64,000 bases of DNA, taken from Halorhodospira halochloris. Its GTDB lineage: Bacteria > Pseudomonadota > Gammaproteobacteria > Nitrococcales > Halorhodospiraceae. How positions within the stretch are numbered: position 1 is the first letter of the stretch; every line of letters begins with the position of its first letter. The stretch lies in NCBI RefSeq assembly GCF_002356555.2, contig NZ_AP017372.2:2210501-2274500 (forward strand), read 5' to 3'. A program made the translations under genes and the position numbers. Shown piece after piece: positions 1 through 63,359 of this stretch. The notes beneath the pieces were generated by a model. The model ran no database searches, was not told the origin of the DNA, and saw only the letters and a program-made list of their open reading frames with translations.

Positions 1-1
1 A

Positions 2-1675
2 CTAGAACATCATGAGGTGCTTAAAGCGCGCATGCTCAAATGGCTCAAAGGTGATGACAACGGGGAAGGCAAAGAAGGCACTTATACAGCCTGCGCCCGC
101 ATCTGGGAGGCCTGCTCGGCCATGGATGACTACTGGGAGGACGCACTTGCGGAGGCGGCAGGAAAGAACAAGGTGAATGTTTACGAGGCAATCATTGAAC
201 ACAAGATATGGAGATCGGGAGCTTTAGGAGGGAGTGTTCTGAGTTCTGTTGCCTTGAGCGGGAAGGCGGCTATCGATCTCTGTCGACCCAAGGATGTTGC
301 CCAGAATTCGGATCCAGCCAAGGATGAGGTGAGCTTGGAAAAGCTTGTCAAAGATTGGGGAAATGCGAGTGATCTGCCAAGCAATACTGACAAGGCGGGT
401 GATGGGGATCATGCAGAGAAGCAGAGTTCCGCAAGCCTGATCAGCTTCCCGATGCTCCTACTGCACACCTTGAGGATTTGGCTCCACCGTCATGGTCCCA
501 AGGGCGCCGATCTCGAAAGATTCGATAGCTTTAAGCTGCTCGAAACCTTCGATGCCCTGCTGCTCTCAGATAACAGCATGTCCCATCCACTCCCAGATAT
601 CCGCGAGCGGGTAAAAAGTTTCATCGAGCTTCTCTGGGAAGTCCGCTTCCTGCTAGATCAGTACATCATCCGCTGGGTTGAGTTGAAGGAAGGGGGAGAA
701 TGGGGACACCGGATCCTCAGACTTGAGCAGAATAAGAGCACGAGTCTGCGTCGCGCTGACGCCGAGCAGTCTGGTGACAAGGAACTCTCGCTGCTCCAGA
801 GTATGCTCTATCACAGTCAAGATATTCGCCAGTTGCTCTGGCTGACACCGCTGCTCGGGTATCTGCACTCCCGAACCTTCCCCACTGAAGAACGATCAGG
901 ACAAACGGCTCTGGTACCGTCCGAGCAAGGCACAGAAAGCGATCTAACGGTCTTCATGCGCCACCTTGATAATGGCCTGTTCAGCAGCCCCTCGCTAGGT
1001 TCTAAAAACTCTGAAACTGAAGCAGAGTCCCTGCTGCAGCGCAGCCGCGCCTTCCTTGAAAAACCCTGGCGCTCGTTCAAAAAACCTACTATCGAGCCTC
1101 TTCACGGGGGGTTCCACGGCACCGATGACATGCCCCGAACATCCCACTACTGGTACTATAAGGCCGATTTTGTCATCTGGCGCCGTTATCAAGGGGGCTC
1201 GCAATCTAATGAGTCGTTACCGCAGCTCCAAGGCCAGAACGACGTAACCCAAGGCCAGCTTGAAGATGCGTGGCAGCATTTCCGGTTCACGGCTCGCGCC
1301 TCAGTAGAACACATCCGCCCTCAGACCTCACAAGAAGAAGGTCAGGAGAAAGAAGGCTGGGGCGATGCCCTGCACTCTTTCGGCAACCTTGCCCTAGTCT
1401 CGCGTGAACGCAACTCCGAGTTTAGCAACAAGCCATACCATGAGAAGCGAGTTAAATATTTGACGCGACTTCGACAAAAGGATCTACAATCCCCGAAGCT
1501 AGCCTTGGTGTACCTTTACGGCGGTGTGCCTGAACCTTCAGGCCTAGGCCTGAAACATGGAGAGTGGGGAGCCGAGCATGCCAAGGCACATATGGAGTGG
1601 ATAGAGAGAAGCATGGAAGAGTATTTCAGCCTTGCGGGATATTCCGGTAAAAAGATTGCGGACACCGAGCCTTAG
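2..1675 (+). CDS. GmrSD-like DUF262/DUF1524 restriction protein, 5' truncated by window edge
   Basis: The reading frame is open from base 2, so the N-terminus lies outside the window. The first visible residues (HHEVLKARML) match the stretch that in DUF262 proteins lies inside the gene, after the DGQQR nucleotide-binding motif. The C-terminal part holds the DUF1524 HNH-type motif (VEHIRPQ near residue 432, followed by FGNLALVSRERNS). Families of this kind (GmrSD, BrxU, SspE) are NTP-dependent nucleases that restrict modified phage DNA. The protein resembles the gene at 48634-50571, including the LLWEVRFLLDQYIIRWVELKE segment versus LWEVRYQFDRWVVKWVERS there. It may therefore be the second gene of a similar two-gene unit. 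A GTG at 17 is not a credible start. The family call is firm; the substrate is unknown. Confidence 0.82.
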   Translation, partial: LEHHEVLKARMLKWLKGDDNGEGKEGTYTACARIWEACSAMDDYWEDALAEAAGKNKVNVYEAIIEHKIWRSGALGGSVLSSVALSGKAAIDLCRPKDVAQNSDPAKDEVSLEKLVKDWGNASDLPSNTDKAGDGDHAEKQSSASLISFPMLLLHTLRIWLHRHGPKGADLERFDSFKLLETFDALLLSDNSMSHPLPDIRERVKSFIELLWEVRFLLDQYIIRWVELKEGGEWGHRILRLEQNKSTSLRRADAEQSGDKELSLLQSMLYHSQDIRQLLWLTPLLGYLHSRTFPTEERSGQTALVPSEQGTESDLTVFMRHLDNGLFSSPSLGSKNSETEAESLLQRSRAFLEKPWRSFKKPTIEPLHGGFHGTDDMPRTSHYWYYKADFVIWRRYQGGSQSNESLPQLQGQNDVTQGQLEDAWQHFRFTARASVEHIRPQTSQEEGQEKEGWGDALHSFGNLALVSRERNSEFSNKPYHEKRVKYLTRLRQKDLQSPKLALVYLYGGVPEPSGLGLKHGEWGAEHAKAHMEWIERSMEEYFSLAGYSGKKIADTEP

Positions 1676-12544: not shown

Positions 12545-12627
12545 TCAATTGGCGCAGTGCCAACTCGGAAGCGCAGCGTAAGAGAGATAAACCGACGATT
12601 GATTCAGAGGAGTTTTTCCAGGCTCTC

Positions 12628-13146: not shown

Positions 13147-13266
13147 GTCAATAGTGGCACTATGCGGATTGGCGAAGAAGTTGAGTAAAACTAGCAGCAA
13201 GGCTACTTTGAGGAATCCTCTAATCCATCGAAATGTACCTAGCGTGCAGACAGAAAGCAAGGTCAG

Positions 13267-22565: not shown

Positions 22566-22580
22566 TATTGTCTCTTGTAG

Positions 22581-23153: not shown

Positions 23154-23919
23154 TCACTGCCTCCCCCATGGTGCGATAGCCCCAGGTGATCTGCGTTACA
23201 TCACCAGCGGATTGCACAATGAAATGCCCCTCGGGGGCAAGGCGTTTGAGCTGCTGGCGGACGTCATCACCCTCCAAACCAAACAGTCCCCAATCAGGGT
23301 GGCGTATTATCTGTCTGTCTGCAAAACCCAATCCGCGGAGGTTATAGGCGAGGTATGTCGCCACTCGGGGATGGATACGAACCGGCCTTATTGGCCGTGG
23401 CGGTAAGCGACAATTGCCGAGCAGCCCAAAATCCGTGCACGTCCCCAGCAGATAGGACGCGACACGCCGCACCGTGCTCGGTGCCCAGGGTTTTTGAGTT
23501 CTGCCCTCTCGCACTGCAGCTTCGACAAAGGCTGTTGCATCGTCTCGGGAAAGCTCATCAAAACCAGCCATGTATCGGGGCCAAAAGACCTCACGGATGA
23601 AATCCGCCAGTATGCAATTGGCCCGCGCCGTATACAGCATAAACAGCTGGATGAGCTCGTCGCGCTGCCAATACTCCGCGAGACGCTTTAGTATGGCAGC
23701 CACCTCGGGATCCTCCATATACCGCGGCGCGAACCCTTCCTGTACCAAGTTTAGCAAACGACGTGCTGTCATCGTCGGAAAGCGCCCGGAGTCCAGAGCA
23801 GCTGTGTAGAGCTCGCGCACCGACATGCCCGAGCGGTAGAGCTCGAGCAGCGCGAGGGTCTCATCAACGAGGCCTAGGCCCGCTTGCAACCGCGTTGTGT
23901 AAAGTCTAGCCTCACTCAC
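23134..23919 (-). CDS. brxA: BrxA (DUF1819) BREX protein
   Basis: 261 residues from the GTG at 23919, which overlaps the brxE stop (GTGA). The frame stays open further upstream inside brxE, but the GTG gives the family-like start VSEARLYTTRLQAGLGLVDE. Other family segments are WPRYMAGFDELSRDDATAFV and STVRRVASYLLGTCTDFGLL. BrxA binds DNA and is part of the BREX core. Translational coupling on both sides supports the operon. Confidence 0.92.
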   Translation of the reverse strand: MSEARLYTTRLQAGLGLVDETLALLELYRSGMSVRELYTAALDSGRFPTMTARRLLNLVQEGFAPRYMEDPEVAAILKRLAEYWQRDELIQLFMLYTARANCILADFIREVFWPRYMAGFDELSRDDATAFVEAAVREGRTQKPWAPSTVRRVASYLLGTCTDFGLLGNCRLPPRPIRPVRIHPRVATYLAYNLRGLGFADRQIIRHPDWGLFGLEGDDVRQQLKRLAPEGHFIVQSAGDVTQITWGYRTMGEAVNALAGH

Positions 23920-24407
23920 TCTGCGTGCCTCAGGTAGGGATAGGCCCGTCGATTCTCGTGGATTGCGGCCGCATAGTGACCGGCCATCTTCCCAAGCGAG
24001 AGGGCCAGGTCCTCGTCCCACCCGCCTACCAATACCGGCCCTTCATTGGGCTCGACGGGATAGGCGAGTGCGGACAGCCGCTGCATGGCCTCTTCCCGGC
24101 TGCCAAGATGGGCAAGGACTTGATCAATGCCCGTGGCGTCACGCAGGACCGCCGCGGCCGCCTGCTCGTGAAGTTCAGGCATTCGAAACAGGTGCACGAT
24201 ACGGCCCACGCCGATACGTTCGTCATGTGCCCTGGCGGCGGCTACGGTAACGCCCTGATACTGACTCAGAGGCAGCGAACGGGGAAAGACCGGCATTAAA
24301 AAAGTGCGAGAAGAACGCGCAAAAAACTGGCTGCCCCACCAACCATGCTCCTCTCCCAGATAACCCACAAGGGCCCTCAACTCGGCGAGGACTTCGATTG
24401 CCCGCAT
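23916..24407 (-). CDS. brxE: BrxE family protein (BREX type 6 marker)
   Basis: 163 residues. The start MRAIEVLAELRALVGYLGEE and the GWWGSQFF, LMPVFPRSLPLSQYQGV and IGVGRIVHLFRMPE segments match BrxE, which occurs as the first gene of type 6 BREX loci. Its function is not known. It is the promoter-proximal gene of the brxE-A-B-C operon here. The upstream 280 bases (24408-24685) contain no recognisable gene and should hold the operon promoter. Confidence 0.85.
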   Translation of the reverse strand: MRAIEVLAELRALVGYLGEEHGWWGSQFFARSSRTFLMPVFPRSLPLSQYQGVTVAAARAHDERIGVGRIVHLFRMPELHEQAAAAVLRDATGIDQVLAHLGSREEAMQRLSALAYPVEPNEGPVLVGGWDEDLALSLGKMAGHYAAAIHENRRAYPYLRHAE

Positions 24408-42568: not shown

Positions 42569-42606
42569 CCTAGCGTACGATTTTTTCCTTTTTCTGAGAG
42601 GGCCCC
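42569..42606 (-). repeat. 38-base Tn3-family terminal inverted repeat
   Basis: Ends in GGGCCCC and contains TTTTTTCCTTTTTCTGAGA, as at 50911-50948. It is the inverse of 50668-50705 and a near match to 46833-46870. The layout (GGGG end, AGAAAA core, CGTACGCTAAG end) is that of Tn21/Tn3-type inverted repeats. Here it abuts, and supplies, the stop codon of the RES gene. Confidence 0.82.
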
Positions 42607-43769: not shown

Positions 43770-43890
43770 GTTTTTGGGGAGCGCGTCAATCTGTATGGGC
43801 GGTTCGATCTCGATATGAGTACCCGGCGCGACCTGTCGTGGTCGAGATGGCCCCTGGTGACACGACTGTTGGGCCTACCCCTACTACCGA
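43770..43890 (+). pseudogene. Tn3-family tnpA 3' end, copy 3
   Basis: Plus-strand frame reads GERVNLYGRFDLDMSTRRDL then RWPLVTRLLGLPLLP, matching the tail of the tnpA fragments at 9518, 11589, 50580 and 52488, with the shared terminus in inverse orientation (gttgggcctacccc). Only the last 40 or so codons are present. Confidence 0.6.
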
Positions 43891-45004: not shown

Positions 45005-46870
45005 GGGGTACTGCAACAGTTGTGTCACCAGGGGCCATGCCGCTACGCGCCAGAATTCCTTGCCGTGCTCAAGCTGCGGGCCGCGCCCGCAGCCAAGGAT
45101 GTGCTCGATGCCATTGAGGTGCTGCGCGGCATGAACAGCAACAACGCCCGCAAGGTGCCCGCTGACGCGCCAACCGACTTCATCAGGCCGCGCTGGCAAA
45201 AAATAGTCATGACCGACACCGGCATCGACCGGCGTTACTACGAACTGTGTGCATTATCGGAGTTGAAGAACGCGCTACGCTCCGGCGATATCTGGGTACA
45301 GGGGTCACGCCAGTTCAAAAACTTCGACGACTACCTGGTGCCGCCCACGACATTCGCCAGCCTCAAGCAGGCCAGCGAACTGCCGCTGGCCGTGGCCAGC
45401 GACTGCGACCAATACCTGCATGAGCGTCTAACGCTGCTGGAAACGCAGCTCGCCACCGTCAACCGCATGGCGCTGGCCAACGAACTGCCGGACGCTATCA
45501 TCACCGAGTCGGGCCTGAAGATCACACCACTCGATGCGGCGGTGCCCGAGACCGCGCAGGCACTGATCGACCAGACGGCGATGATCCTGCCGCACATTAA
45601 GATCACCGAACTGCTGCTGGAGGTAGACGAGTGGACCGGCTTTACCCGTCACTTCACGCACCTGAAGTCAAACGACCCGGCTAAGGACAAAAAACTGCTG
45701 CTGACCACGATCCTGGCCGACGCGATCAACCTGGGCTTGACCAAGATGGCAGAGTCCTGCCCCGGTACGACATACGCCAAGCTCGCTTGGCTGCAAGCCT
45801 GGCACATCCGTGACGAAACCTACGGGGCGGCATTGGCCGAGCTGGTCAACGCGCAATTAAGACATTCCTTTGCCGAGCACTGGGGAGACGGGACCACATC
45901 ATCGTCGGACGGCCAGAACTTCCGCACCGGTAGCAAAGCTGAGGGCACGGGCCACATCAACCCGAAATACGGCAGCAGCCCCGGGCGAACGTTCTACACC
46001 CACATCTCCGACCAGTACACGCCGTTCCACACCAAGGTAGTAAACGTCGGTGTGCGCGATTCGACCTACGTTCTCGACGGCTTGCTGTACCACGAATCCG
46101 ACCTGCGCATCGAGGAGCACTACACCGATACAGCCGGCTTCACCGATCACGTCTTCGCGCTGATGCATCTGTTGGGCTTCCGCTTCGCGCCGCGCATTCG
46201 CGACCTTGGCGACACCAAACTCTACATCCCGAAAGGCGAAGCTGCCTACGAAGCACTGCATCCAATGATCGGTGGCACACTGAACATCAAGCGCGTCCGA
46301 GCCCATTGGGACGAAATCTTGCGGCTGGCCACTTCAATCAAGCAGGGTACGGTGACGGCTTCGCTGATGCTCAGGAAACTCGGCAGCTACCCACGCCAGA
46401 ACGGTCTGGCTTTGGCGCTGCGCGAGTTGGGACGCATCGAGCGTACGCTGTTCATCCTCGATTGGCTGCAAAGCGTCGAACTGCGCCGCCGCGTGCATAC
46501 CGGACTGAACAAAGGGGAGGCGCGCAACGCGCTAGCCCGCGCGGTGTTCTTTAACCGCCTAGGCGAAATCCGCGACCGCAGTTTCGAGCAGCAGCGCTAC
46601 CGAGCCAGCGGCCTCAACCTAGTAACGGCGGCCATCGTGCTGTGGAACACAGTCTATTTGGAGCGGGCCGCGAACGCTTTGCGTGGTCACGGCCAGACCG
46701 TCGATGACGCCTTATTGCAGTACCTGTCGCCACTGGGCTGGGAGCACATCAATCTGACCGGCGATTACCTCTGGCGCAGCAGCGCCAAGATCGGCGCTGG
46801 CAAGTTCAGGCCGCTACGGGCGTTGCAACTGCCTTAGCGTACGATTTTTTCCGTTTTCTGAGACGACCCC
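45005..46870 (+). mobile_element. Truncated Tn3-family transposon
   Basis: The right end is complete: tnpA runs into a 38-base terminal inverted repeat at 46833-46870, which contains the tnpA stop. The left end is a short GGGGTACTGCAACAGTTGTG terminus related to the GGGGTAGACC family, joined at about 45040 to the interior of tnpA. About 385 N-terminal codons, the resolvase and the true left end are missing. Not autonomous. Confidence 0.8.
45050..46837 (+). pseudogene. tnpA: Tn3-family transposase TnpA, N-terminally truncated
   Basis: About 595 of roughly 980 residues. [20 protein letters not shown] at the start belongs to the middle of TnpA. DDE-region sequences include [40 protein letters not shown] and [13 protein letters not shown]-like text ([20 protein letters not shown]). 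The C-terminus [20 protein letters not shown] is the family signature. The catalytic core is largely present but the DNA-binding N-terminus is gone, so it should not transpose. Confidence 0.88.
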
Positions 46871-47010: not shown

Positions 47011-47231
47011 ATAGCGGTAGCGCTTTCGGCGCCGGCCTTTGGTGTTTTTTCTTGAATTATCCGGGACAATGTGAAGGAATAAGGAGCCAAGGAGACTATT
47101 ATGGTTAACCGAACCAACGAACGGGCTGCGGAGGTGTCCATCGAACTGCCACTTGAACAGATGGGCCTGACCAGGACAGGCAAGGCAACGTACATGCAGA
47201 GTGCAGCGATTGATGATAACAGGGCTGGCTT

Positions 47232-48641
47232 ATGACCGTCGTTGTCGCCAGTTGTACCGTTGCCAAGCTTTTTTCAGGTGAGACCTTCGAGGCCAGCGAC
47301 GGTACATTGATCGAGGGCAACCTGCATCTTCCCGAATACCAGCGCCCCTACCGATGGGGGGAGGCCCAAATCAGACGCCTGCTGGAAGACTTACGCCGAT
47401 ATTTTTGCCCGCCTCACCCTGGTTCGTCACCAGCGCACCTGTTTTATCTGGGCAGCATCATCCTGCATCAGGACGGGGAAGGTCGTCTCAACATCATCGA
47501 TGGCCAGCAACGGTTGACGACAATGGCTCTTCTAATGTGGCAGCAGGCGCCCGGCAGTGAACCGAAGTTACGCTATGAGTCGCCACTCAGTCATGCACAG
47601 ATTCGGAAAAACCAAGAGTGGCTGAAACAGCAGGAAAACTGGAACCGGGCGTGGCTGAAGCTAGAACGCATTAACATCACCGTGGTGGTCACCCGTAGCG
47701 AGGACGATGCCTACTGCTTTTTCGAAACCCAGAATACCGGCGGTGTACGCTTGAGCGGGCCAGATATCATCAAGGCCCATCACCTGCGGGCCACACCTCG
47801 CAGCCGGCAGGACCGCTATGCACGTCTCTGGGAGAGCCTCGGCGATCTGAACCCGGTGGTGGATGCGGTGCTCAAGGCTCGCTCTTGGAATGCACTTAAT
47901 TTCCGGCACGTCCCATCCCGCCGCGAGCCGCTCAGTGTACGCGAGACTGTGGTCACGGAGCTGGCTGAGAATACCGGAGAGGGGCACGCCGATGTGGCTT
48001 ATGGTCTAACCGCAACCTCTCGGACCCCGGACGGTGCGGTAGTGCAGGTGGCTCATGCAGACGGATACGCCATGCGCCAGCCCCTCAACGCAGGTATTAA
48101 CTCCATTCACTATCTGGAATATTTTGAGAGCCTTCGCCGAATACTCCTGACTAACCACCGAGAGCCGGATCTAGACTCTTTCCACAACTTCTATCAGGGG
48201 CTGATCGTCGGCCGGCAAGGGTGTAGCTACCTGAAGAAGCTCTACGACAGTTGCTTGCTGCTTTACGCCAGTCATTTCGGGCGGAGCCAACTCTTCGAGG
48301 CTAGCTTACGGCTGTTTCGGGTTGTCTATGCTCCGCGAGTGACCAACGAAAAGACCGTCAAGGAAGCTACAGCTTCCAAATTTGTTCGTGAAAACCCCGT
48401 ATTCGACTGGATACTGATGAGCTACACCCACGAACAATGTATGGAGCGCCTGCGTCTGTTCGAGGTAAAGGTCAGTGCTAAGAACCTTGGCCAGAGTGAT
48501 GATGGTGTCAAAAAACGCTTCGTCCAGGCCGTGAACGAATGGTTCAGTCTGGAGCTGCCAAAGGATCGGATGGCGGAACAATATGACGATGCGCTGCAGA
48601 AAGCGATCAAATCTACGCTGGAGGTGGTGAACCATGGATAA
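47232..48641 (+). CDS. DUF262 protein, first gene of two-gene GmrSD-like unit
   Basis: 469 residues. DUF262 motifs are clear: LHLPEYQRPYRWGEAQIRRL near residue 31, LFYLGSIILHQ near residue 73, the nucleotide-binding IIDGQQRLTTMALL near residue 89, and CFFETQNTGGVRLSGPDIIK near residue 158. No C-terminal HNH (DUF1524) motif is seen, so this is likely the NTP-sensing partner. Its stop lies inside the start of the next gene (ATGGATAA), so the two proteins are made together. The unit sits between two Tn3-type terminal repeats. Confidence 0.88.
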   Translation: MTVVVASCTVAKLFSGETFEASDGTLIEGNLHLPEYQRPYRWGEAQIRRLLEDLRRYFCPPHPGSSPAHLFYLGSIILHQDGEGRLNIIDGQQRLTTMALLMWQQAPGSEPKLRYESPLSHAQIRKNQEWLKQQENWNRAWLKLERINITVVVTRSEDDAYCFFETQNTGGVRLSGPDIIKAHHLRATPRSRQDRYARLWESLGDLNPVVDAVLKARSWNALNFRHVPSRREPLSVRETVVTELAENTGEGHADVAYGLTATSRTPDGAVVQVAHADGYAMRQPLNAGINSIHYLEYFESLRRILLTNHREPDLDSFHNFYQGLIVGRQGCSYLKKLYDSCLLLYASHFGRSQLFEASLRLFRVVYAPRVTNEKTVKEATASKFVRENPVFDWILMSYTHEQCMERLRLFEVKVSAKNLGQSDDGVKKRFVQAVNEWFSLELPKDRMAEQYDDALQKAIKSTLEVVNHG

Positions 48642-50571
48642 TTGTGTTTTGACGCAGGTGCAGGCCCCGGCGGCAATTCTCGACGAGGACATCGCCTTCG
48701 TTATTCCCAGTTACCAGCGCCCGTACGTCTGGCCCGATGACGCGGTAGTGAAGCTGTTTGACGACATTTTCCGCGCATGGCAGTGGGATGCTTGTTCCAA
48801 CTATTACATCGGAACCGTTCTGACCGCGCCGATTTCTCACATTGAAGGTGCTGCCTACGAGCTTATAGACGGCCAGCAACGCATTACCACGCTGATGCTG
48901 ATCGCTCTGGCCTTTCGTGTCACAGGACAGGAGACCGCTCTGAATCCACTGGCCGAACGGGGGAATGCGCCACGCCTGACCTTCGCCATCCGTGAGCAGG
49001 TCCAGGCACTACTGGGCTATTGGTCAGGGCTGGACGGCTACCAGTATCCTGGTGAAGATGCGGTGAAAACAAATCCTTATCTGACACGTCTTGACGACGC
49101 GCTGAATGTGCTAAAGCAGTTGGTAGGTGCCATAGAAAAGGACCGTCGGATCGAGTTGGCTGGTTACATCCATACCAATGTGCAGTGGGTGAATAACACC
49201 ATGCCTGGGAGCATGGACCTGAACCGCCTCTTCGCAACCATGAATACCCGGGGAGTACAGCTGGAACAGTCCGATATCCTGAAATCCATGCTGCTTAGGC
49301 GAATTTCCACGGATAAATCCCGCTACGAAGCCATCTGGCAAGCCTGCGAGCAAATGGACAACTACTTCGAGCGGAACGTCCGGCAGATTTTTGGAGGTAC
49401 CGACTGGTCGGATATGCTCCCAGAGCATTTGCGCCATTTCGACCCAGCGCGTTTTTTGCTGTCCGAGGAGCAAAATCTTGAAGCGGAAAGGCCGGGTTCT
49501 GGGCTCACCATCAGCCAACTGGCAGATAGCTCCTACCCCGATGAGAACGAAGGATCTAGTGCTCTGGATCTGGACGATACGGTCTACTGCCAGTCAATCA
49601 TAGGTTTTCCTCTTCTTCTGATGCACGCACTCCGTATCTACACCGCCCGTTCTGGCTATGCCGACATTGGTGGCCGTCTCCACAGCGAGCGGCTTATCGA
49701 CAGCTTCAGCGTTCTTGTCGACGCATCAGAGACGGAGGTCAAGGAATTTGTAGAATGTCTCTGGGAAGTGCGTTACCAGTTTGATCGCTGGGTCGTGAAG
49801 TGGGTAGAGCGGTCTGATGAGGATGAGAGGCAACTCCGGCTGACGGATATTAACCGCAGCCCGTCGAATGGTAATTGGTATCTAACCCGTAGTGTAAAAA
49901 AGCTCTTCGAGCTAGTACCACTCCAAAGCGTTCGCCACTTCACTGGCGAACACAGTGCCCAATACTGGCTGACTCCGTTTCTCGGGCTTTTGTGCATGGA
50001 AACAAACCCCTCGGAAAACACAGTTCTGGACATTATGGAGCGAATTGATAACCAGCTTTCCCTTGCAGAAGCATCCCAGAAACAAGCAAGTTTTGAGCTG
50101 CTTTCGGGTGATGTCTCTGCCCAACGGTCGGTAGCTGCCATCATTGAATATCTGAAAACCCCCTGCGGAACCAAGTTCGAACACTACTGGTTCCAGAAGC
50201 TGGAATACCTTCTTTGGAAGAGGGATCACAGCCAAGATGAGAAGGTGCTCAATTACCGCATCGTATCACGCAACTCCATTGAGCATGTTTACGCTCAAAA
50301 TGAGGAGTTTAAAAATGAGATGAAGCGGGATTACCTTGATGCTTTTGGGAACTTGGTACTACTCAATCCCAGTGAAAACTCGTCTTACGGCTACCAATCT
50401 GTAAACAAGAAAAAGGCAGACTTTAAGGACAGAAGCCATTATAATGGAAGTTATGACTCACTCAAACTTAAGGAAATATTCTCACTAATGGGCCAAGGCG
50501 AATGGAGTCCCAACCTTGTTGAAGCCCATCAAGAAGCCATGTTTGAGTTAATTTCGTGTCATTACAGCTGA
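48634..50571 (+). CDS. DUF262-DUF1524 (GmrSD-like) nuclease, second gene of the unit
   Basis: 645 residues. N-terminal DUF262: FVIPSYQRPYVWPDDAVVKL near residue 22, YYIGTVLTAP, ELIDGQQRITTLML near residue 75 and LNRLFATMNTRGVQLEQSDI near residue 195 with LKSMLL. C-terminal DUF1524 HNH: SRNSIEHVYAQ near residue 545, FGNLVLLNPSENSSYGYQSV near residue 569. GmrSD-type enzymes use NTP hydrolysis and cut modified DNA. It is homologous to the truncated gene at the start of the window. Both motifs intact, so probably active. Confidence 0.88.
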   Translation: MDNCVLTQVQAPAAILDEDIAFVIPSYQRPYVWPDDAVVKLFDDIFRAWQWDACSNYYIGTVLTAPISHIEGAAYELIDGQQRITTLMLIALAFRVTGQETALNPLAERGNAPRLTFAIREQVQALLGYWSGLDGYQYPGEDAVKTNPYLTRLDDALNVLKQLVGAIEKDRRIELAGYIHTNVQWVNNTMPGSMDLNRLFATMNTRGVQLEQSDILKSMLLRRISTDKSRYEAIWQACEQMDNYFERNVRQIFGGTDWSDMLPEHLRHFDPARFLLSEEQNLEAERPGSGLTISQLADSSYPDENEGSSALDLDDTVYCQSIIGFPLLLMHALRIYTARSGYADIGGRLHSERLIDSFSVLVDASETEVKEFVECLWEVRYQFDRWVVKWVERSDEDERQLRLTDINRSPSNGNWYLTRSVKKLFELVPLQSVRHFTGEHSAQYWLTPFLGLLCMETNPSENTVLDIMERIDNQLSLAEASQKQASFELLSGDVSAQRSVAAIIEYLKTPCGTKFEHYWFQKLEYLLWKRDHSQDEKVLNYRIVSRNSIEHVYAQNEEFKNEMKRDYLDAFGNLVLLNPSENSSYGYQSVNKKKADFKDRSHYNGSYDSLKLKEIFSLMGQGEWSPNLVEAHQEAMFELISCHYS

Positions 50572-50579
50572 ACGGAATT

Positions 50580-50667
50580 GGGGTAGACCCAACAGTCGTG
50601 TCACCAGCCGCCACTTCTCTCAGGGCAGGGCCAGCCGAGTGTTCATGTCGAGTTCGAAACGCCCGTA
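50580..50667 (-). pseudogene. Tn3-family tnpA 3' end, copy 4
   Basis: Begins with GGGGTAGACCCAACAGTCGT, as at 9518 and 52488, and continues into gttcatgtcgagttcgaaac, encoding the NTR/DMN tail on the minus strand. It abuts the 38-base inverted repeat at 50668. Confidence 0.6.
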
Positions 50668-50948
50668 GGGGCCCTCTCAGAAAAAGGAAAAAATCGTACG
50701 CTAAGCATGCGCTGACGCCGGCGTCCAGCGGTACAGCGGCCGAGTGCCTTGGCAACGTGATTGGGCGGCACCCCTCTGGCCAGCAGCTTCTTGACTGACT
50801 CGAACTCGCTGCCTGTCATTTTTGGCTTGCAACTGCCCTTGTGACCGGACTGCTTGGTGACTTTCAGACCGGCGCGAGCAAGTTCAGGCGAATACGGCCG
50901 CTGCAGCTGCCCTAGCGTACGATTTTTTCCTTTTTCTGAGAGGGCCCC
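50668..50948 (+). mobile_element. Miniature Tn3-derived element with resolvase fragment
   Basis: 281 bases bounded by 38-base inverted repeats at 50668-50705 and 50911-50948 that differ at only one or two bases. The interior encodes on the minus strand the C-terminal helix-turn-helix of a Tn3-type resolvase (KMTGSEFESVKKLLARGVPP NHVAKALG), without start or catalytic domain. Size and structure fit Tn3-derived miniature elements (TIMEs), which can be mobilised by a related transposase. No 5-base target duplication was found. Confidence 0.8.
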
Positions 50949-52439: not shown

Positions 52440-52487
52440 TAGCCTTCCGGGATAACTTCGTTAGGCAGTAAGCGGTCATTCTGACAT

Positions 52488-52560
52488 GGGGTAGACCCAA
52501 CAGTCGTGTCACCAGCCGCCACTTCTCTCAAGGCAGGGGCAACCGAGTGTTCATACAGAT
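52488..52560 (-). pseudogene. Tn3-family tnpA 3' end, copy 5
   Basis: GGGGTAGACCCAACAGTCGT and the following 45 bases match 9518 and 50580; similarity ends near gagtgttcata. Only the extreme end of the element is present. Confidence 0.58.
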
Positions 52561-56978: not shown

Positions 56979-58106
56979 ATGGCAACCGAGGGCAAGAATA
57001 CGCTTCTGTGTATCGCCGGGCTAACGCCGCAAGTGGTTACAGAGACGCTGTATGCAATCACCATTGAGAGCCAGGGTGCCTTACCCGACCGCCTGGAAAT
57101 CATTACAACCACGGAGGGACGAAGGCGTCTTCTACTAACCTTGCTATCTAAGGATGGTGGACATGGCTACCTGGATCGTTTTTATCAAGACTACGGCCTT
57201 GATCGAGCAAACTTGGCTTTTGATGAGTCATGTGTGCATGTAATCCACGGCTTAGATGGGGAACCATTGGCAGACATAGTTACTGAGCAGGACAACTGCG
57301 CCGCAGCTGACTTAATCCATGAGCGCATACGTCAGCTCACCCAGCAGACGCAGAAACTCCACGTCTCTATTGCCGGGGGCCGCAAAACCATGGGCTTTTA
57401 TGCTGGTTACTCGCTCTCGCTATACGCACGACCGAGTGACCGCCTCAGCCATGTGTTAGTCAACGCACCTTTTGAGTCGCATCCGAGCTTCTTTTATCCC
57501 CCGCCGCAGCCACTGACTTTGCAGCTTCCCGGTCGTAACGACATCATCAGCACCGCCGAGGCGCAGGTGCGTCTAGCAGACCTCCCGTTCGTGCGCCTGC
57601 GTGAGGAACTAGGTGAGGATTTACCTTATGCCGGACTTTCCTTCAGTGAAGCTGTTGAGCGTGCACAACAAGTTATCACGCCAGCTCAGCTTGCCCTCGA
57701 TTTAGCCGAGCGAACCGCCAATCTCCAGGGTCAGGTAATAAAGCTCTCCCCTACCCACTTCGTCTGGTTAACCTGGTTTGCCGATCGCGCCCGACGAGAA
57801 AAGCCACCTCTGCGCTTTGATCACGAAGCAGCGAAGGAATTGGAGCGCTACATAGATTGGCTCGACGGCAGCAATTCGCCGCTTCACGAAAGCCTCCACT
57901 CAGCGCGCGAAGAACTAGAATCGGAGGGGTGCTCCAACTACTTCGAGCGCACCCGCTCGCGACTTAACAAAGCGCTCGCCGAGCGCAGCGGTTTACCGGC
58001 TCGGGCGGTAGCGCGCTATCAGATTCACGCATGCAGCAACCGCCCGCAAAGCACTTATGCCCTCCGCTTAACTCCTGAACAGATCCGCATGGTGGGGGAG
58101 CCTTGA
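56979..58106 (+). CDS. NE0113-family CARF protein (annotated in databases as ring nuclease Csm6)
   Basis: 375 residues. The N-terminal CARF-like domain covers about 1-190: TLLCIAGLTPQVVTETLYAI near residue 7, EIITTTEGRRRL near residue 39, and SIAGGRKTMGFYAGYSLSLY near residue 130, the expected cyclic-oligoadenylate pocket. LVNAPFESHPSFFYP near residue 157 is typical of the NE0113 family. The C-terminal part (about 200-375) is helical with a possible winged helix (NKALAERSGLPARAVARYQI); no R-x4-6-H HEPN motif is apparent. It likely binds cA4 or cA6 made by Cas10. Confidence 0.85.
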   Translation: MATEGKNTLLCIAGLTPQVVTETLYAITIESQGALPDRLEIITTTEGRRRLLLTLLSKDGGHGYLDRFYQDYGLDRANLAFDESCVHVIHGLDGEPLADIVTEQDNCAAADLIHERIRQLTQQTQKLHVSIAGGRKTMGFYAGYSLSLYARPSDRLSHVLVNAPFESHPSFFYPPPQPLTLQLPGRNDIISTAEAQVRLADLPFVRLREELGEDLPYAGLSFSEAVERAQQVITPAQLALDLAERTANLQGQVIKLSPTHFVWLTWFADRARREKPPLRFDHEAAKELERYIDWLDGSNSPLHESLHSAREELESEGCSNYFERTRSRLNKALAERSGLPARAVARYQIHACSNRPQSTYALRLTPEQIRMVGEP

Positions 58107-58502
58107 GCCGGCAAGCTTGCCAATGTCTTTTTACAGTTGTTGTTGTGCAACCATTTGCCCTATCAAGATCGGCTCATGCATGCGTAAAACGATAGAGTGA
58201 ATGTTATGCCCTTCAGGATCCATATTGGCAAGTCTTTCCAAACACACATGCATACCCGGCAGGCCTTCCTGATGCTGCGGCACTACTGGCGGATAAGCTT
58301 TAAGCATTTTATGAATCAGCAAGCCGGAACAACTCCTGTTGTGGATATTAAAAATAGCTGTGCCGGGGCAGCACGTGCTAGTTTACCCCAGCATGAAGAG
58401 ATTGAGGCTGACTTAGCCAGTAGTAGCGTGTCCCGCCGTCAGCTTCTTAGTTTGTTTACTGAAGCTCGAGCAAGACTAATTTAGTAACCCGCAGAGCCCG
58501 TA
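58107..58502. other. Gap in the csm operon without a recognised gene
   Basis: A 95-codon frame at 58197-58484 (RRQLLSLFTEARARLI at its end) and a minus-strand frame at 58131-58322 exist. Neither resembles a known family and neither has a clear ribosome-binding site. It may be a relic of a lost accessory gene. Confidence 0.4.
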
Positions 58503-59480
58503 ATGTTTCCTGAGATGCCAGTAGCCCACTATCGCTTCACCTTCCGTGCTCAAGAAGACGGACGACTGCCGCGCTACCTCGGGTCCGCCTGGCGGGGGTT
58601 ATTGGGACACACTTTTAAACGCCATCTGTGCGTAACAGGCAAGCGTACATGCGAGCTATGTCTTTTATACCGGCATTGCATCCATGCTGATATTTTTGAA
58701 ACGCCCACACCTGCTCCCGATAAATTAGGTAAAGATATGGTTAAATGGCAGGCGCGCTATCCTAAGGCGCCTCATCCCTTTGTACTTGGCTTGTCGCTAA
58801 ATAGTGGTGGCCAGGTTAGCGCTGGCGAAAAACTTTCCCTCGGCGTCACCCTGCTAGGCAGAGCGACCGGCACCATTCCCTACTGGGTCCATGTCTTGCA
58901 GGCTGCCGGCGAGCAGGGGCTAGGCCCGCAGCGTGTGCCGCTGGCTCTGGAGACGGTGCACCAGGAGTGCGGGCCAGGTGATGGGGATTGGGCGCTGGTG
59001 TACCTTCCTGGCGAGACGTTTGAGCCGCAACCAGCGCAGCACCCGAAACCACCGCCGGTGCCTAATCGCGTGCGGCTGCGCCTGCACACTCCGCTGCGAG
59101 TTCGTCGTGGAGGCAGGCACGTTTCGGCACAAGAGCTGGCTTTCCACGACCTGTTCCGTACCCTGCTAAGGCGGCTGTCCATGCTCAGCCAGTTCCACGG
59201 CCCAGGCCCCCTGGAAGGAGATCCCCGCACCTTGGTTGAGATAGCGCGCGGCATAGCTTGGCAAAAGACTGACTGGAGGTGGCACGATTGGCAACGCTTC
59301 TCGGCTCGGCAAGGCAGACGCGTTCCTATGGGGGGAGTCATCGGCGAAGCCCTGCTTGATGGTAACGACCTGGTGTTCATCTGGTCACTGCTTTGGTTCG
59401 GCCAGTGGGTTCATGCTAGCCGTGGGGCTAGTATGGGTCTTGGTCGCTACGAGATCATAAGCGAGGACGCGATATCATGA
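58503..59480 (+). CDS. cas6: Cas6 pre-crRNA endoribonuclease
   Basis: 325 residues. The N-terminal RAMP fold starts HYRFTFRAQEDGRLPRYLGS with GLLGHTFKRHLC, and a Cys-rich stretch (CELCLLYRHCIHADIFETP near residue 55) is typical of this Cas6 branch. The C-terminal glycine-rich loop is WVHASRGASMGLGRYEI near residues 300-317. Cas6 cuts within the repeat to release crRNAs and can serve all arrays with this repeat. It overlaps cas10 by 4 bases (ATGA). Confidence 0.92.
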   Translation: MFPEMPVAHYRFTFRAQEDGRLPRYLGSAWRGLLGHTFKRHLCVTGKRTCELCLLYRHCIHADIFETPTPAPDKLGKDMVKWQARYPKAPHPFVLGLSLNSGGQVSAGEKLSLGVTLLGRATGTIPYWVHVLQAAGEQGLGPQRVPLALETVHQECGPGDGDWALVYLPGETFEPQPAQHPKPPPVPNRVRLRLHTPLRVRRGGRHVSAQELAFHDLFRTLLRRLSMLSQFHGPGPLEGDPRTLVEIARGIAWQKTDWRWHDWQRFSARQGRRVPMGGVIGEALLDGNDLVFIWSLLWFGQWVHASRGASMGLGRYEIISEDAIS

Positions 59481-62107
59481 GCACGGAGCAAATAAAAACC
59501 AGCTGGCGTACGCAAGATCATGTTGTGCTCGGCGCCCTGATCCACGACATCGGCAAGCTCTTCGAGCGAGGCGACTTGCTCGACAGCTATAGAAATGATG
59601 AGGATATGCTTCAAGCATACTGCCCTTTTCAAATAAGGGGCCGTTATTTTAGCCACAAGCACGCTGTTCATACTTTGGCCTGGGCCGAGCGCCTTGCAGA
59701 GCGAATACCTGCGCTTGATCCAGAGCACCTCGGGATTGGTACGGATCACTGGCTAAACTTGGCCGCCCGGCATCACAAGCCCTCGAGCGCCCTGGAGGCT
59801 CTCATAAAGAGAGCCGATGATCTAGCAAGCCAGGAGCGGGATCCGCTAGGCATCGACGCTCGCTTTATCAGCCGTAAAGTCCGGCTCGAGCCTATCCTGG
59901 AGCGCGTAACCCTCGAGGCCGATCCCGGTCGAGCGCGCACCACGGAAACCCGCGTCCCCCTGACACCGATGGAGCCAGGGTCGCCCTACTTCCCGGAGCA
60001 TGCTCACAAAATGGATCCGCCCATGAACTGGGATCGTGAAAAATGCGCCTGGGTAAGCCAGCAGGATCTGGGGGACGCCTACGCACGGCTTGGCCAAGAC
60101 CTACTCGGCCAGCTTGAGCAACTCCCCACCGCCGAGGCCCCGCCCAGCGCGATCATAGGGACACTACTTACTCTGCTCGAGCGTTACACCGCCCAGGTGC
60201 CCTCGGCAACTAACACCGCGCACCCGGACATCTCGCTGTTTGACCACTTGCGGGTGACGGCTGCCATCGCCGAGGGGCTGTACACCTATCACCAAGACCA
60301 AGGCGACGGCCTGGAGAACGTCGAGAAAAGGGACCAGACCGCCAAGTGGGCATTGGTATGCGGTGATCTCTCAGGCATCCAGCGCTTCATCTACCGTATC
60401 ACCAGTCGCGGAGCAGCTCGCGCGTTGCGGGGGCGTTCGCTGTACCTGCAGCTTCTCACCGACGGTCTAGCCAGCCGCATGCGCCGCGAGCTTGACCTGC
60501 ACGCACCGGCGCAGATATACGCCTCGGGCGGCAAATTTTTCTTGCTTATCCCCAGCACCCGCGTGGATCAGGCTCGTCAGGTCGCCGCGACCATCAACGA
60601 TGAGCTTCTGGCCCCCTTCCAGGGCCAGCTCCGCCTAGGCCTGGGCACCGCACACCTCGCCCCGAATCACTTCCGGGCGGGCCATATGGGCGAGCGCTGG
60701 CAGGCGACGATAGATGACCTCCACCGGGACCGCACGCGCCCCTGGGCAGGACGCATGGCGCATCCCCCAGAAAAGGAGGATCAGGATTTCTTTGCCCCCG
60801 AATCTCCGTCCGAAGACGGGCACTGCCACGCCTGTGGGCGCGACGATCCGCCGGGCGACATCTGCGATCGCGGAGAAGGCCGCAGGCTCTGCCAACAGTG
60901 CAATGATCTTGAGCAGCTAGGCTTGGCCATCCGGCATGCGAGCGCGATTACCTGGCACGAGCCGGGCACGCAGCGACGGGGATGGGAGCTTCCCGGCACT
61001 GGCCGCGTCATTCGCCTGCCCAGCCGCGAGGATCCGGAGAGCCTCCCGCTCGCCGCCGGCGACGTTTTGGAGCGCCTGGAGGGTTGGCCAGAGCTGGCCG
61101 AGGCCCGCCCCGGGATCGCCTACAGCGCCCGCTTCATAGGTCGCTGGCAGGAGAGCTGCGGGGAGAGCGAGCTTGAGGAGCTCGCGGCATCCTCGCAGGG
61201 CATTAAGCGGCTCGGCATCCTGCGCATGGACGTTGATAATCTCGGGCAGATCTTCGCCCGTGGGCTGCGCTTCGGCAGCACCACCGAAACCGAAAGCAGC
61301 GCCGATATGGGGTCGCTGTCGCGCACCGCTACGCTATCGCGGCAGCTGCACTGGTTCTTCAGCACTCACCTCACCCGCCTGCTCGAGCAGGCAGAGGCCC
61401 CAGCGCAAATCATGTACGCCGGCGGCGACGATCTCTTTATCGTCGGTGCCTGGCACGCGATGCCGGAGTTGGCGGTACGCATCCAGCACGATCTGCAGCG
61501 CTTTGCCAGCCACAACCCGGTCTTCTCCCTCTCTGGTGGTATCGAGCTGGTGGGCGGGCGCTACCCTATCGGACACGCCGCGGAACTCGCCGGAATCCAG
61601 GAGGAGCACGCCAAGGGTCATCGACGCAGCGATAAAGAGGGCCAAACCCGCGACAAGTGCGCCCTCGCCTTCCTCCATACCCCGGTCGGCTGGGAGCAGA
61701 TGGAGCACGTCGAGGGAGTGCGCGAGCAGTTGGAGAGATTCCTCGAGGCGACGGGCAATCGCGCTGTCCTTGGCTATCTGCGTCGCGCCGTGGCGGACAT
61801 GGAGGGCCTGCAGCGGCGCTATGCGCAGGGGCGCTGGAGCGATACCGAACTTCACGCGCTTGTCGAGGCGCAGCGCTGGCGCTGGCAGCTGTTGAGCCGT
61901 TTGCGGCGGCTGCGCCGTCGGCATCAGCATCACACCGAAGCGGTCGGGGCGATCGATCGGCTCCAGGAAGTTTTCATCGAGCAGCAACAGCCACACAAGC
62001 CACCGGACCCGCACCTGCTAGGCCTGCCCGGGCGATGGGTCGAGCTCAAGTACCGGCAAAGCGGTAATTATCTTCCAGATAGAGGCGAGGAGGTACACGC
62101 ACCATGA
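59477..62107 (+). CDS. cas10: Cas10/Csm1, type III-A polymerase-cyclase subunit
   Basis: 876 residues. HD nuclease domain near residues 14-80 (VLGALIHDIGKLFERGD and the later LAARHHKPSSALEALI), which degrades single-stranded DNA. A first Palm domain starts near CGDLSGIQRFIYRITSRGAA (residue 295). Zinc-binding four-Cys knuckle lies near residues 449-475 (CHACGRDDPPGDICDRGEGR and CQQC). The second Palm has LRMDVDNLGQIFARGL near residue 583 and the catalytic YAGGDDLFIVGAW near residue 646, which makes cyclic oligoadenylates. Both HD and GGDD are intact, so DNA cleavage and signalling should work. Confidence 0.96.
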   Translation: MSTEQIKTSWRTQDHVVLGALIHDIGKLFERGDLLDSYRNDEDMLQAYCPFQIRGRYFSHKHAVHTLAWAERLAERIPALDPEHLGIGTDHWLNLAARHHKPSSALEALIKRADDLASQERDPLGIDARFISRKVRLEPILERVTLEADPGRARTTETRVPLTPMEPGSPYFPEHAHKMDPPMNWDREKCAWVSQQDLGDAYARLGQDLLGQLEQLPTAEAPPSAIIGTLLTLLERYTAQVPSATNTAHPDISLFDHLRVTAAIAEGLYTYHQDQGDGLENVEKRDQTAKWALVCGDLSGIQRFIYRITSRGAARALRGRSLYLQLLTDGLASRMRRELDLHAPAQIYASGGKFFLLIPSTRVDQARQVAATINDELLAPFQGQLRLGLGTAHLAPNHFRAGHMGERWQATIDDLHRDRTRPWAGRMAHPPEKEDQDFFAPESPSEDGHCHACGRDDPPGDICDRGEGRRLCQQCNDLEQLGLAIRHASAITWHEPGTQRRGWELPGTGRVIRLPSREDPESLPLAAGDVLERLEGWPELAEARPGIAYSARFIGRWQESCGESELEELAASSQGIKRLGILRMDVDNLGQIFARGLRFGSTTETESSADMGSLSRTATLSRQLHWFFSTHLTRLLEQAEAPAQIMYAGGDDLFIVGAWHAMPELAVRIQHDLQRFASHNPVFSLSGGIELVGGRYPIGHAAELAGIQEEHAKGHRRSDKEGQTRDKCALAFLHTPVGWEQMEHVEGVREQLERFLEATGNRAVLGYLRRAVADMEGLQRRYAQGRWSDTELHALVEAQRWRWQLLSRLRRLRRRHQHHTEAVGAIDRLQEVFIEQQQPHKPPDPHLLGLPGRWVELKYRQSGNYLPDRGEEVHAP

Positions 62108-62553
62108 ACGCAGCCAATGCCAACCACCCTAGGCATAAGCAACAGGGACCTTCGGGTTCCGATCCAGCCACCATCCGCGGCTTCATCGAGGACGATCAGG
62201 CGGACCAGCTCGTAGCTACGGCGGAGCGTCTAGGCCAGGACATGGGCAAACAGGTCTCTACTAGCCAGGTGCGCAACATCTTCTCCTCCATCAAGCGCCT
62301 AGAAATGCGCGAGCAGCAACACAGCCCTTCCGGGGATGCACCCCTCTCTCCGAACGTGCGACGCGAACTGCTGCTACTCAAGCCACGCCTTGCCTACGCC
62401 ACCGCGCGAGAGAACAGACTCAAGCCGCTCCATGATGCGGTAACAACCGCCCTCGATGTCGTAGCCCAGCAAGGCGACCAGAACGCGCTACGGCGCCTGA
62501 GCGCCTTCTATGAGGCCATCGTCGCTTATCATCAGTACCACGGAGGCAAGTAG
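62104..62553 (+). CDS. csm2: Csm2, small helical subunit
   Basis: 149 residues, mostly helical (IRGFIEDDQADQLVATAERL then KQVSTSQVRNIFSSIKRLEM), with the conserved LLLLKPRLAYATARENRLKP near residue 85 and YEAIVAYHQYHGGK at the end. It forms the inner filament of the type III-A complex with Cas10. It overlaps cas10 by 4 bases and is followed by csm3 after 2 bases. The N-terminus has a 30-residue extension of low complexity. Confidence 0.93.
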   Translation: MNAANANHPRHKQQGPSGSDPATIRGFIEDDQADQLVATAERLGQDMGKQVSTSQVRNIFSSIKRLEMREQQHSPSGDAPLSPNVRRELLLLKPRLAYATARENRLKPLHDAVTTALDVVAQQGDQNALRRLSAFYEAIVAYHQYHGGK

Positions 62554-62555
62554 CC

Positions 62556-63359
62556 ATGACGGATGTCAGCCAATACGCCACACTGCAGTCCAAGGTGTTT
62601 CTACGCGGCGAGCTGCGCGCCGAGACGGGGCTGCACATCGGCGGCAGTGAAACGGGGCTGGGCATCGGCGGTGCGGACAGCGTAGTGGTCCGCGACCCGC
62701 TCGACCATACGCCATACGTCCCCGGAAGCTCCCTGCGGGGCAAGCTGCGCTCGCTACTTGAGCGTGCTCGCGGGCTGGAGGGTGCGAATGGTAATGCCGA
62801 GGGCGGCTTTGCGCTAGGCAAGAACAACGCCGGGGTGCCCGGGCGTGATCCGAGCACTGCGCTCGCCCAGCTCTTCGGGATCACTGCGGACCAGAACGCC
62901 CGCGGCCCCTCGCGGCTGATTGTGCGCGATGCCCGGCTCACACCGGATAGCTATCAGGCACTTATGGATGCCCCGGGCACCGACATGCCCATGACGGAGG
63001 TCAAGACTGAGGTCAGCATCGACCGCATCACTTCCGCCGCCATGCCTCGGCAGCTCGAGCGCGTTCCCGCGGGCGCCCGCTTCGACTTTGAGCTCGTCAT
63101 TACTGTCATGGTCGCCGACGACCGGCAGCAGTGGCTCAACCTCATCCTTGAGGGTCTGGACCTGCTCCAGGACGATACGCTCGGCGGCAACGGCTCGCGC
63201 GGCTACGGTCGGATCAGCGTGGACCTCCGGGAGCTCCTGGAGCGCGACAGCCAGGCCTACCGGGAGGGCCGCGAGGCAATCCCCATCACGGATCTGGATA
63301 TCCCGCCAGCGCTCCAGGGGCACCCGGAGGCAACCTCCCCATCCACGGCCACCGCCTGA
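62556..63359 (+). CDS. csm3: Csm3, backbone RNase subunit
   Basis: 267 residues, RAMP protein. TGLHIGGSETGLGIGGADSV near residues 26-45 contains the Asp expected to cut target RNA at 6-base spacing. Then PLDHTPYVPGSSLRGKLRSL near residue 51, RVEHK-like EVKTEVSIDRITSAAMPRQL near residue 150, and GNGSRGYGRISV near residue 212, the glycine-rich loop. Longer than most Csm3 by a C-terminal tail of about 25 residues (ATSPSTATA). Multiple copies line the crRNA. Confidence 0.95.
   Translation: MTDVSQYATLQSKVFLRGELRAETGLHIGGSETGLGIGGADSVVVRDPLDHTPYVPGSSLRGKLRSLLERARGLEGANGNAEGGFALGKNNAGVPGRDPSTALAQLFGITADQNARGPSRLIVRDARLTPDSYQALMDAPGTDMPMTEVKTEVSIDRITSAAMPRQLERVPAGARFDFELVITVMVADDRQQWLNLILEGLDLLQDDTLGGNGSRGYGRISVDLRELLERDSQAYREGREAIPITDLDIPPALQGHPEATSPSTATA

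What the first reader, a model, noticed from the sequence alone, without database searches (positions are those of the whole stretch)
47232..50571. Overlapping pair of DUF262 genes, the second with DUF1524
Two DUF262 proteins are translated as a unit; only the second has the HNH motif (SIEHVYAQ). GmrSD is usually one polypeptide or a GmrS/GmrD pair with DUF262 in only one. A homologous C-terminal half at 2-1675 suggests a second copy of the same kind of unit upstream of the window. The pair is enclosed by Tn3-type ends, as cargo would be.
Basis: partly seen in the sequence, partly recalled or inferred. Interest (0 to 1): 0.62.

Follow-up and report, generated by a model that had tools for sequence, protein, structure and literature searches.

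The report
Two-gene TgvAB-type anti-phage restriction system
Two overlapping bacterial genes encode what looks like a known kind of two-protein enzyme (TgvAB) thought to destroy phage DNA carrying chemical modifications; this bacterium carries two distant versions of it in one defence-rich stretch, which is of modest interest.

Summary
In detail: gene A (47232-48641; DUF262+DUF7834) and gene B (48634-50571; DUF262+DUF1524) overlap by 8 nt. The architecture is published as TgvAB of Vibrio cholerae (PMC11411939, 2024). In both the A and the B tree the window pair falls in one clade (support 100) with pairs embedded in type I restriction-modification loci; it is 51% (A) and 47-48% (B) identical to unnamed Vibrionaceae pairs whose B carries H571 and N602, the residues mutated in published TgvB. 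The left pair is a distant member. A 44-aa ORF before A resembles the start of the HsdR that normally follows TgvB, a possible scar of former embedding. The Tn3-cargo claim fails: the nearest Tn3-type ends belong to elements lying on either side. [quoted passage not shown] No activity was tested. New member of a known kind.

The parts
47232..48641 (+). gene A (TgvA-like, 469 aa): DUF262/GmrSD_N (aa 31-185) + DUF7834 (aa 193-414)
   Evidence: QR at aa 37-38, DGQQR at 90-94, F164 and N168 invariant in 46 of 46 aligned A proteins
48634..50571 (+). gene B (TgvB-like, 645 aa): DUF262/GmrSD_N (aa 16-220) + DUF1524/GmrSD_C (aa 512-638)
   Evidence: DGQQR aa 79-83, H551, N573, N582 invariant in 46 of 46 aligned B proteins
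48634..48641 (+). 8-nt overlap ATGGATAA of the two genes (translational coupling inferred)
50284..50286 (+). codon of the His-Me finger histidine H551, equivalent to H571 of published TgvB
   Evidence: alignment A4: H551 aligns with H571, and N582 with N602, of L148 and L149
47101..47235 (+). 44-aa ORF whose stop overlaps the start of A (ATGA); its first ~24 residues resemble the start of the HsdR that follows TgvB in type-I-embedded clusters: possible scar of former embedding
   Evidence: weak but positionally specific; see full report
1..1675 (+). C-terminal part of gene B of the second (left) TgvAB-like pair; the rest and its gene A lie left of the window (L006:9898-14176 = C1:2207897-2212175)
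46833..46870 (-). Tn3-type 38-bp terminal repeat at the 3' end of a truncated Tn3 transposase gene (45020-46837); outer end faces the pair
50668..50948 (.). 281-bp Tn3-type mini-element (terminal repeats 50668-50705 and 50911-50948) with a stretch similar to recombinase genes; flanks CCGTA/AATGA do not match

Best explanation
[quoted passage not shown] Shown here: two overlapping genes; a DUF262 NTPase/sensor domain with intact motifs in both; a DUF1524 His-Me nuclease domain with intact catalytic residues only in B; membership by tree and alignment in the clade that holds type-I-embedded TgvAB; A and B inherited together across several bacterial phyla. Inferred from published TgvAB, GrwAB, BrxU and SspE work: A and B act together (probably as a complex). 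Their DUF262 domains bind and hydrolyse NTP and sense hypermodified bases (sugar-modified hydroxymethylcytosine for TgvAB), and this licenses B's nuclease to cut incoming phage DNA. A does not look like a decayed spare copy: its DGQQR is invariant and it has its own conserved C-terminal domain. The substrate of this particular pair, and whether it differs from that of the divergent left pair, is not known.
For: Domains and overlap. Second pair in the same genome. E. coli plasmid pLAO4 has the same five-gene order with A 46% and B 46% identical to the window. Trees of 46 pairs: an 11-row clade with the window and the embedded pairs, SH-aLRT 100 in A and in B. A and B tree distances correlate at r = 0.953 (0 of 2000 permutations as high); 27 of 43 splits are shared (largest of 500 shuffles: 2). 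DGQQR 46 of 46 in both; H551, N573, N582 46 of 46 in B. The predicted B structure (mean pLDDT 87.8) matches SspE (Z 19.0, rmsd 9.7, 516 aligned), DndI (Z 17.0, rmsd 16.1, 487 aligned) and BrxU (Z 11.5, rmsd 9.8, 414 aligned). An ORF just before A resembles the start of the clade's HsdR.
Against: No activity was measured here. The pair is not embedded in a type I locus; the only HsdR_N match in the genome is at C1:924145, about 1.3 Mb away. Window B has Ala next to the catalytic motif (A554) where 43 of 46 B proteins have Pro (2 of 46, window included, have Ala, 1 Ser). The structural matches of B have high rmsd, and A's match by sequence is confined to the DUF262 part. Identity to the rows outside the 11-row clade is only 18-29% (A) and 21-32% (B). 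The trees flag long branches (including the left pair's B) and unlike composition in several rows.
Confidence: 0.85

Rival explanations
1. A tandem of two independent single-chain GmrSD-like genes, the first having lost its nuclease; A is a dying copy without function.
For: A has DUF262 but no DUF1524; the A and B DUF262 domains are homologous (profile probability 99.9-100).
Against: A's QR, DGQQR, F164 and N168 are invariant in 46 of 46 and A has its own C-terminal family, DUF7834, with invariant G288 and R369. That part does not match B's C-terminal half by profile comparison (probability 0.2). A and B trees agree. Published TgvA is needed for protection (PMC11411939).
Confidence: 0.04
2. 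A GrwAB-type pair (broader substrate range including 7-deazaguanine DNA).
For: GrwAB is also two DUF262 proteins with DUF1524 in one (PMC12137116 passages).
Against: In GrwAB the partner without DUF1524 (GrwB) is encoded by the second gene and has several unknown C-terminal domains. Here the nuclease gene is second and the partner is a 469-aa DUF262-DUF7834 protein, in the clade of type-I-embedded pairs.
Confidence: 0.04
3. A phosphorothioate sensor like SspE or DndI.
For: The closest solved structures of B and A are SspE and DndI.
Against: The match reflects the shared DUF262/DUF1524 build. SspE and DndI belong to Ssp/Dnd modification systems (entry titles and PMC10952713 passages). Among the window proteins scanned with PADLOC, apart from the DUF262 genes themselves, the only such match was a weak SspC hit (E 4.3e-08) of a protein that is far better a BrxC; the whole genome was not searched for Ssp/Dnd genes.
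Confidence: 0.05

Closest known systems
TgvAB (Vibrio cholerae VPI-2; VC1767/VC1766; PMC11411939)
   Same: Two adjacent genes, DUF262 first and DUF262+DUF1524 second; QR, DGQQR and FxxxN in both; His-Me residues at equivalent places (H551/N582 for H571/N602); same clade as type-I-embedded pairs; 51% (A) and 47-48% (B) identity to five-gene clusters of the Vibrionaceae sample that carry H571/N602.
   Different: The window pair is not inside a type I operon (at most a scar of an hsdR start before A); it lies between Tn3 remnants in a defence-rich stretch; its substrate is untested.
GrwAB (V. cholerae WASA lineage; PMC12137116)
   Same: Two-protein GmrSD-like system, DUF262 in both, DUF1524 in one.
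   Different: Reverse gene order; partner protein with a different, extended C-terminus.
GmrSD / Eco94GmrSD / BrxU / SspE / DndI
   Same: DUF262 NTPase/sensor and DUF1524 His-Me nuclease; gene B has this build.
   Different: Described as single proteins (or separate GmrS and GmrD) without a second DUF262 partner.

Membership tests
TgvAB | Two adjacent co-directional genes, both with N-terminal DUF262 | tested here: met
TgvAB | DUF1524 only in the second gene product | tested here: met
   GmrSD_C in B (E 8.7e-18), none listed for A at E up to 1
[quoted passage not shown]
   A: Q37 R38, D90-R94, F164/N168; B: Q28 R29, D79-R83, F200/N204; each invariant in 46 of 46
TgvAB | His-Me nuclease residues of TgvB (H571, N602) | tested here: met
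   H551 and N582 of window B align with H571 and N602 of L148 and L149 B
TgvAB | Full-length homology and common clade with type-I-embedded pairs | tested here: met
TgvAB | Direct alignment with VC1767/VC1766 themselves | not tested
   no named V. cholerae chromosome was reached; unnamed five-gene clusters of the Vibrionaceae sample used instead
TgvAB | Embedding between hsdS and hsdR (name-giving, not defining: 79 five-gene hits against 1,341 tgvAB hits in PMC11411939) | tested here: not met
   the only HsdR_N match of the genome is at C1:924145; a possible hsdR-start scar lies before A. In the 11-row clade 6 of 11 pairs have hsdM, hsdS and hsdR around them (L013, L039, L148, L149, L150, L152; in L150 hsdR is about 3.5 kb downstream); the other 5, window included, do not in the stretch held
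TgvAB | Both proteins needed; restriction of phages with sugar-modified hydroxymethylcytosine | not testable with these tools
   needs phage assays
GrwAB | Nuclease gene first, partner with long multi-domain C-terminus second | tested here: not met
   nuclease gene second; partner 469 aa with DUF7834
Classical GmrSD (single chain, or GmrS + GmrD with DUF262 in one only) | DUF262 in only one polypeptide | tested here: not met
   DUF262 in both proteins
Tn3 transposon cargo | Pair lies between inward-reading terminal repeats of one element, with a 5-bp target duplication | tested here: not met
   nearest repeats 46833-46870(-) and 50668-50705(+) have their outer ends towards the pair; flanks TCATT and CCGTA differ; the only other repeats within 12 of 38 mismatches in the window are 42569-42606(-) and 50911-50948(-)

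The most novel reading that the evidence does not exclude
The genome keeps two anciently diverged TgvAB systems about 46 kb apart, on either side of a truncated BREX locus, as complementary sensors with different DNA-modification specificities. The A subunit is an obligate second sensor/NTPase whose own invariant residues (H184 in the DUF262 domain, where B proteins have L, M, F or I; G288 and R369 in DUF7834) gate the nuclease of B across a heteromeric interface. The left pair, with L033 and L034, would be a sub-family of its own with an untested substrate; the window pair would be an escapee from a type I cluster, still carrying the start of its hsdR.
Probability: 0.3. Interest if true: 0.45.

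Novelty: new member of a known kind. Interest (0 to 1): 0.27.

Why it matters
It also supplies residues for testing the question left open in print: why TgvB needs TgvA. A genome with two diverged pairs is a natural comparison for substrate range. It does not reveal a new kind of system.

Tried and rejected
Tn3 cargo: rejected on the orientation and flanks of the terminal repeats.

Recent tandem duplication of the pair: rejected. The two pairs share 24-28% identity, against 42-51% between the window pair and the other rows of its clade, and they sit on different branches in both trees.

Hidden homology of A's C-terminal part to B's linker or nuclease: not found by profile comparison (probability 0.2). 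A structural overlap of most of A with DndI (Z 11.9, rmsd 6.0, 379 aligned) is left open; mostly helical models give middling Z easily.

44-aa ORF before A: no NCBIfam match. A first conservation search used the wrong frame and found nothing beyond the window's own copies except noise; the frame was corrected and the search repeated, which changed the result (see full report).

Solved structure of a close relative of A or B: none found by sequence. Best PDB matches to A were a DUF262 protein 20yv (E 4.8e-08) and 9jfl (E 7e-07); for B 9jfl (E 4.4e-06).

Literature: DUF7834 occurs in 0 papers of the library. A broad search on DUF262, heterodimer and structure (622 papers with at least 3 of 5 terms, 15 listed) listed nothing on a TgvAB complex. 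A search aimed at the second TgvAB study, by Gomez and Waters, did not list it, so it is known here only as cited in PMC11411939 and PMC12409362.

Rows left out: the alignments A3/A4 and the trees hold 46 pairs with two complete genes. Complete pairs left out are L051, L053, L057, L062, L063, L066, L067 and L087 (most with N-terminally extended reading frames; L057 as near-copy of L055) and L151 (near-copy of L149); also pairs cut by contig ends (L028, L035, L044, L052), the Vibrionaceae loci L123-L147 that were not extended, and L012, whose second gene is not in the stretch held.
Full report
Observation. Gene A (47232-48641, 469 aa) and gene B (48634-50571, 645 aa) are as described, on the + strand, overlapping by ATGGATAA. 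Pfam gives GmrSD_N + DUF7834 for A and GmrSD_N + GmrSD_C for B. In PADLOC the best matches are HEC-06 and Orf5 models for A (E 7.9e-23 and 5.2e-20) and for B (E 3.1e-30 and 7.3e-29), best stretch in the DUF262 part. The genome is one contig of 2.83 Mb with five GmrSD_N matches: four over the cut-off, all in two pairs, and a fifth of 25.3 bits in an N-terminal fragment elsewhere. It has two DUF7834 matches. The left pair is L006:9898-11706 (A) and 11699-14176 (B, ATG start chosen), also with an 8-nt overlap, and runs into the window as 2-1675.

How common. Among 40 genomes (the window's own and 39 relatives) only the window's own has DUF7834. In the class sample 11 of 369 genomes have it, the window's own included. 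Of the other 10, 8 have a DUF262 gene directly behind it (7 with the nuclease profile; in L028 the second gene is cut by the contig end), one ends at the contig edge (L036) and one (L037, 35 bits) is a single-chain DUF262-HNH protein. In the family of G406 (the genome of L049, Photobacterium malacitanum) 23 of 296 genomes have 25 matches; 24 of 25 have the DUF262 partner adjacent, and the exception (L145) is a partial 31.5-bit match to a single-chain protein. All 9 regions of this sample that I fetched carry the nuclease domain in the second gene. By my own profiles 37 of 80 contain a DUF7834-type A: 32 of 37 have a second gene with DUF262 and the nuclease, 2 (L044, L052) have a second gene cut by the contig end, and 3 (L041, L060, L070) end before it; L041 appears to be the same contig as L036. 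Two further loci (L048, L054) pair a DUF262 ORF with a nuclease ORF without a DUF7834 match. The 24 tree rows with a told phylum are Bacteroidota 8, Pseudomonadota 7, Bacillota 6, Actinomycetota 2, Myxococcota 1. Among plasmids 998 records match A by protein search, 903 of them Klebsiella, all below 60% identity and 2 covering 80% or more of A; of the 40 listed one has 45.6% and the rest 23.8-27.4%. All 5 regions opened hold a pair.

Identity. The build is that of TgvAB (PMC11411939: outline and abstract, passages, sections 9 and 20): TgvA DUF262, TgvB DUF262+DUF1524, both required, DGQQR of both required, TgvB H571 and N602 required, protection against Tevenvirinae in E. coli, 1,341 tgvAB hits in 41,142 genomes. 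A second two-gene type, GrwAB, is described in PMC12137116 (passages) and reviewed in PMC12409362 (passages). Machnicka et al. 2015 (PMC4619093, outline and passages) had already noted DUF262 enrichment beside GmrSD homologs; PMC10952713 (passages) reviews the single-protein members. Three unnamed loci (L148, L149, L151) show hsdM-hsdS-A-B-hsdR with B carrying H571 and N602; window A is 51% and window B 47-48% identical to them. E. coli plasmid pLAO4 (L013) and Alcanivorax profundi (L039) show the same five-gene order.

Trees. For 46 pairs the A and B trees (IQ-TREE quick search, SH-aLRT support, midpoint root) both put the window pair in the same 11 rows (L011, L013, L038, L039, L040, L148, L149, L150, L152, L153, window; support 100) and the left pair with L033 and L034 (support 99 in A, 87 in B). 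Patristic distances correlate at r = 0.953 (0 of 2000 permutations as high) and 27 of 43 splits are shared (500 shuffles: mean 0.12, largest 2). This shows joint inheritance. It is not by itself proof of contact, because neighbouring genes are inherited together anyway, and the 46 were chosen as pairs. The programs flag long end branches (four rows in A; seven in B, the left pair among them) and unlike letter make-up in several rows, so deep placements, the left pair's included, are less sure than the 11-row clade. The genes overlap in 34 of the 46 pairs; in the other 12 the gap is 12 nt or less (with start codons as I chose them).

Residues. In A: Q37, R38, DGQQR, F164, N168, G171, K181, H184, W200, G288 and R369 are invariant in 46 of 46. 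In B: Q28, R29, DGQQR, F200, N204, S548, E550, H551, Q555, N573 and N582 are invariant in 46 of 46. By profile alignment K181 of A corresponds to K217 of B (46 of 46), whereas H184 falls where B has L, M, F or I. A's C-terminal part is unlike B's by profile (probability 0.2), while the DUF262 parts match at probability 100. Models: A mean pLDDT 86.0, B 87.8. B matches SspE, DndI and BrxU over its length, with large rmsd. A matches SspE (Z 13.1, rmsd 17.8, 368 aligned), DndI (Z 11.9, rmsd 6.0, 379 aligned) and, weakly, BrxU (Z 6.0, rmsd 15.1, 313 aligned); I rely on this only for the DUF262 domain.

A possible scar. The 44-aa ORF at 47101-47235 ends on the start of A (ATGA). In a translated search over all 157 loci held, its only matches at E <= 1 other than the window's own copies were L013 (43.6% over 39 aa, E 0.046) and L153 (61% over 18 aa, E 0.23). 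Both lie at the start of the hsdR reading frame that directly follows B: in L013 an intact hsdR, in L153 a frame that starts like it and soon ends. Against the first 80 residues of the seven HsdR of this clade its alignment score was reached by 0 (L013, L148, L149, L150, L151), 1 (L152) and 2 (L039) of 1000 shuffles; against two HsdR beside pairs of other clades by 631 (L033) and 250 (L029). The seven are homologous, so this is one observation, not seven, and the E-values are weak. If right, the window pair came out of a type I cluster by rearrangement; the fragment now stands before A instead of behind B, which I cannot explain in detail.

Setting. The pair has 53.1% G+C against 58.8% for the window; the left pair has 54.5%. 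Tn3-type repeats lie at 42569-42606(-), 46833-46870(-), 50668-50705(+) and 50911-50948(-). A 16-base core with up to 2 mismatches has 4 places in the whole genome, all in the window (1 for the backward control); 0.12 are expected in the window by chance with up to 3 mismatches. The second repeat closes an element lying to its left, the third opens one to its right. The pair therefore sits between remnants, not inside an element bounded by them, and the flanking 5-mers (TCATT, CCGTA, AATGA) differ. The stretch is defence-rich: BrxA, BrxB and a C-terminally short BrxC lie between the two pairs, and a type III-A CRISPR set with a Csx1-like protein lies to the right.

Mechanism. Shown: gene build, intact motifs, clade, joint inheritance. 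Inferred from published relatives: NTP-regulated sensing of modified DNA by both DUF262 domains and cleavage by B. Unknown: substrate, complex formation, and why A is needed. Verdict: a well-supported new member of a known two-gene family; modest interest.

Noticed in passing
L006:9898-14176 (C1:2207897-2212175), ending at window 1675: Complete second TgvAB-like pair, only 24-28% identical to the window pair, between a small antitoxin-like gene and a dinB-like gene (these two names from reading the sequences, not from a search).
   Followed up: yes
window 47101-47235 (+); L153 around 5188-5135 (-): Fragments that begin like the hsdR of type-I-embedded TgvAB clusters: before A in the window, behind B in L153 (an unembedded relative).
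   Followed up: partly
window 19608-24021 (-): BREX genes brxA, brxB and a brxC whose match stops at 974 of 1212 profile positions, next to a DruA/Tn5-type transposase ORF (17556-19628): a truncated BREX locus.
   Followed up: partly
window 56979-63359 (+): Type III-A CRISPR set: Csx1-like CARF protein, Cas6, Cas10/Csm1, Csm2, a RAMP protein; runs towards the window's end.
   Followed up: partly
window 50668-50948: 281-bp Tn3-type mini-element with 38-bp terminal repeats (1 mismatch from each other) and a stretch similar to recombinase genes of plasmids (about 76%).
   Followed up: partly
window 50575-50670, 9518-9580, 11584-11679, 52487-52554: Short dispersed repeat (63-96 bp, 86-96% identical copies; a weaker 77% copy at 43794-43881) right behind gene B and elsewhere.
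   Followed up: no
L008:6530-6871 (C1:2286559): N-terminal fragment of a further DUF262 gene (25.3 bits, below the cut-off).
   Followed up: no
L075, L091, L106, L117: Pairs in the other order: a DUF262 gene (weak nuclease match in L075 and L106) followed by a 724-794 aa DUF262-like gene, which resembles the published GrwAB layout.
   Followed up: no
L016:3621-12290 (Aliarcobacter cibarius plasmid): A TgvAB-like pair sandwiched between a PD-(D/E)XK nuclease gene and a UvrD-helicase gene with overlapping ends, another kind of embedding.
   Followed up: no
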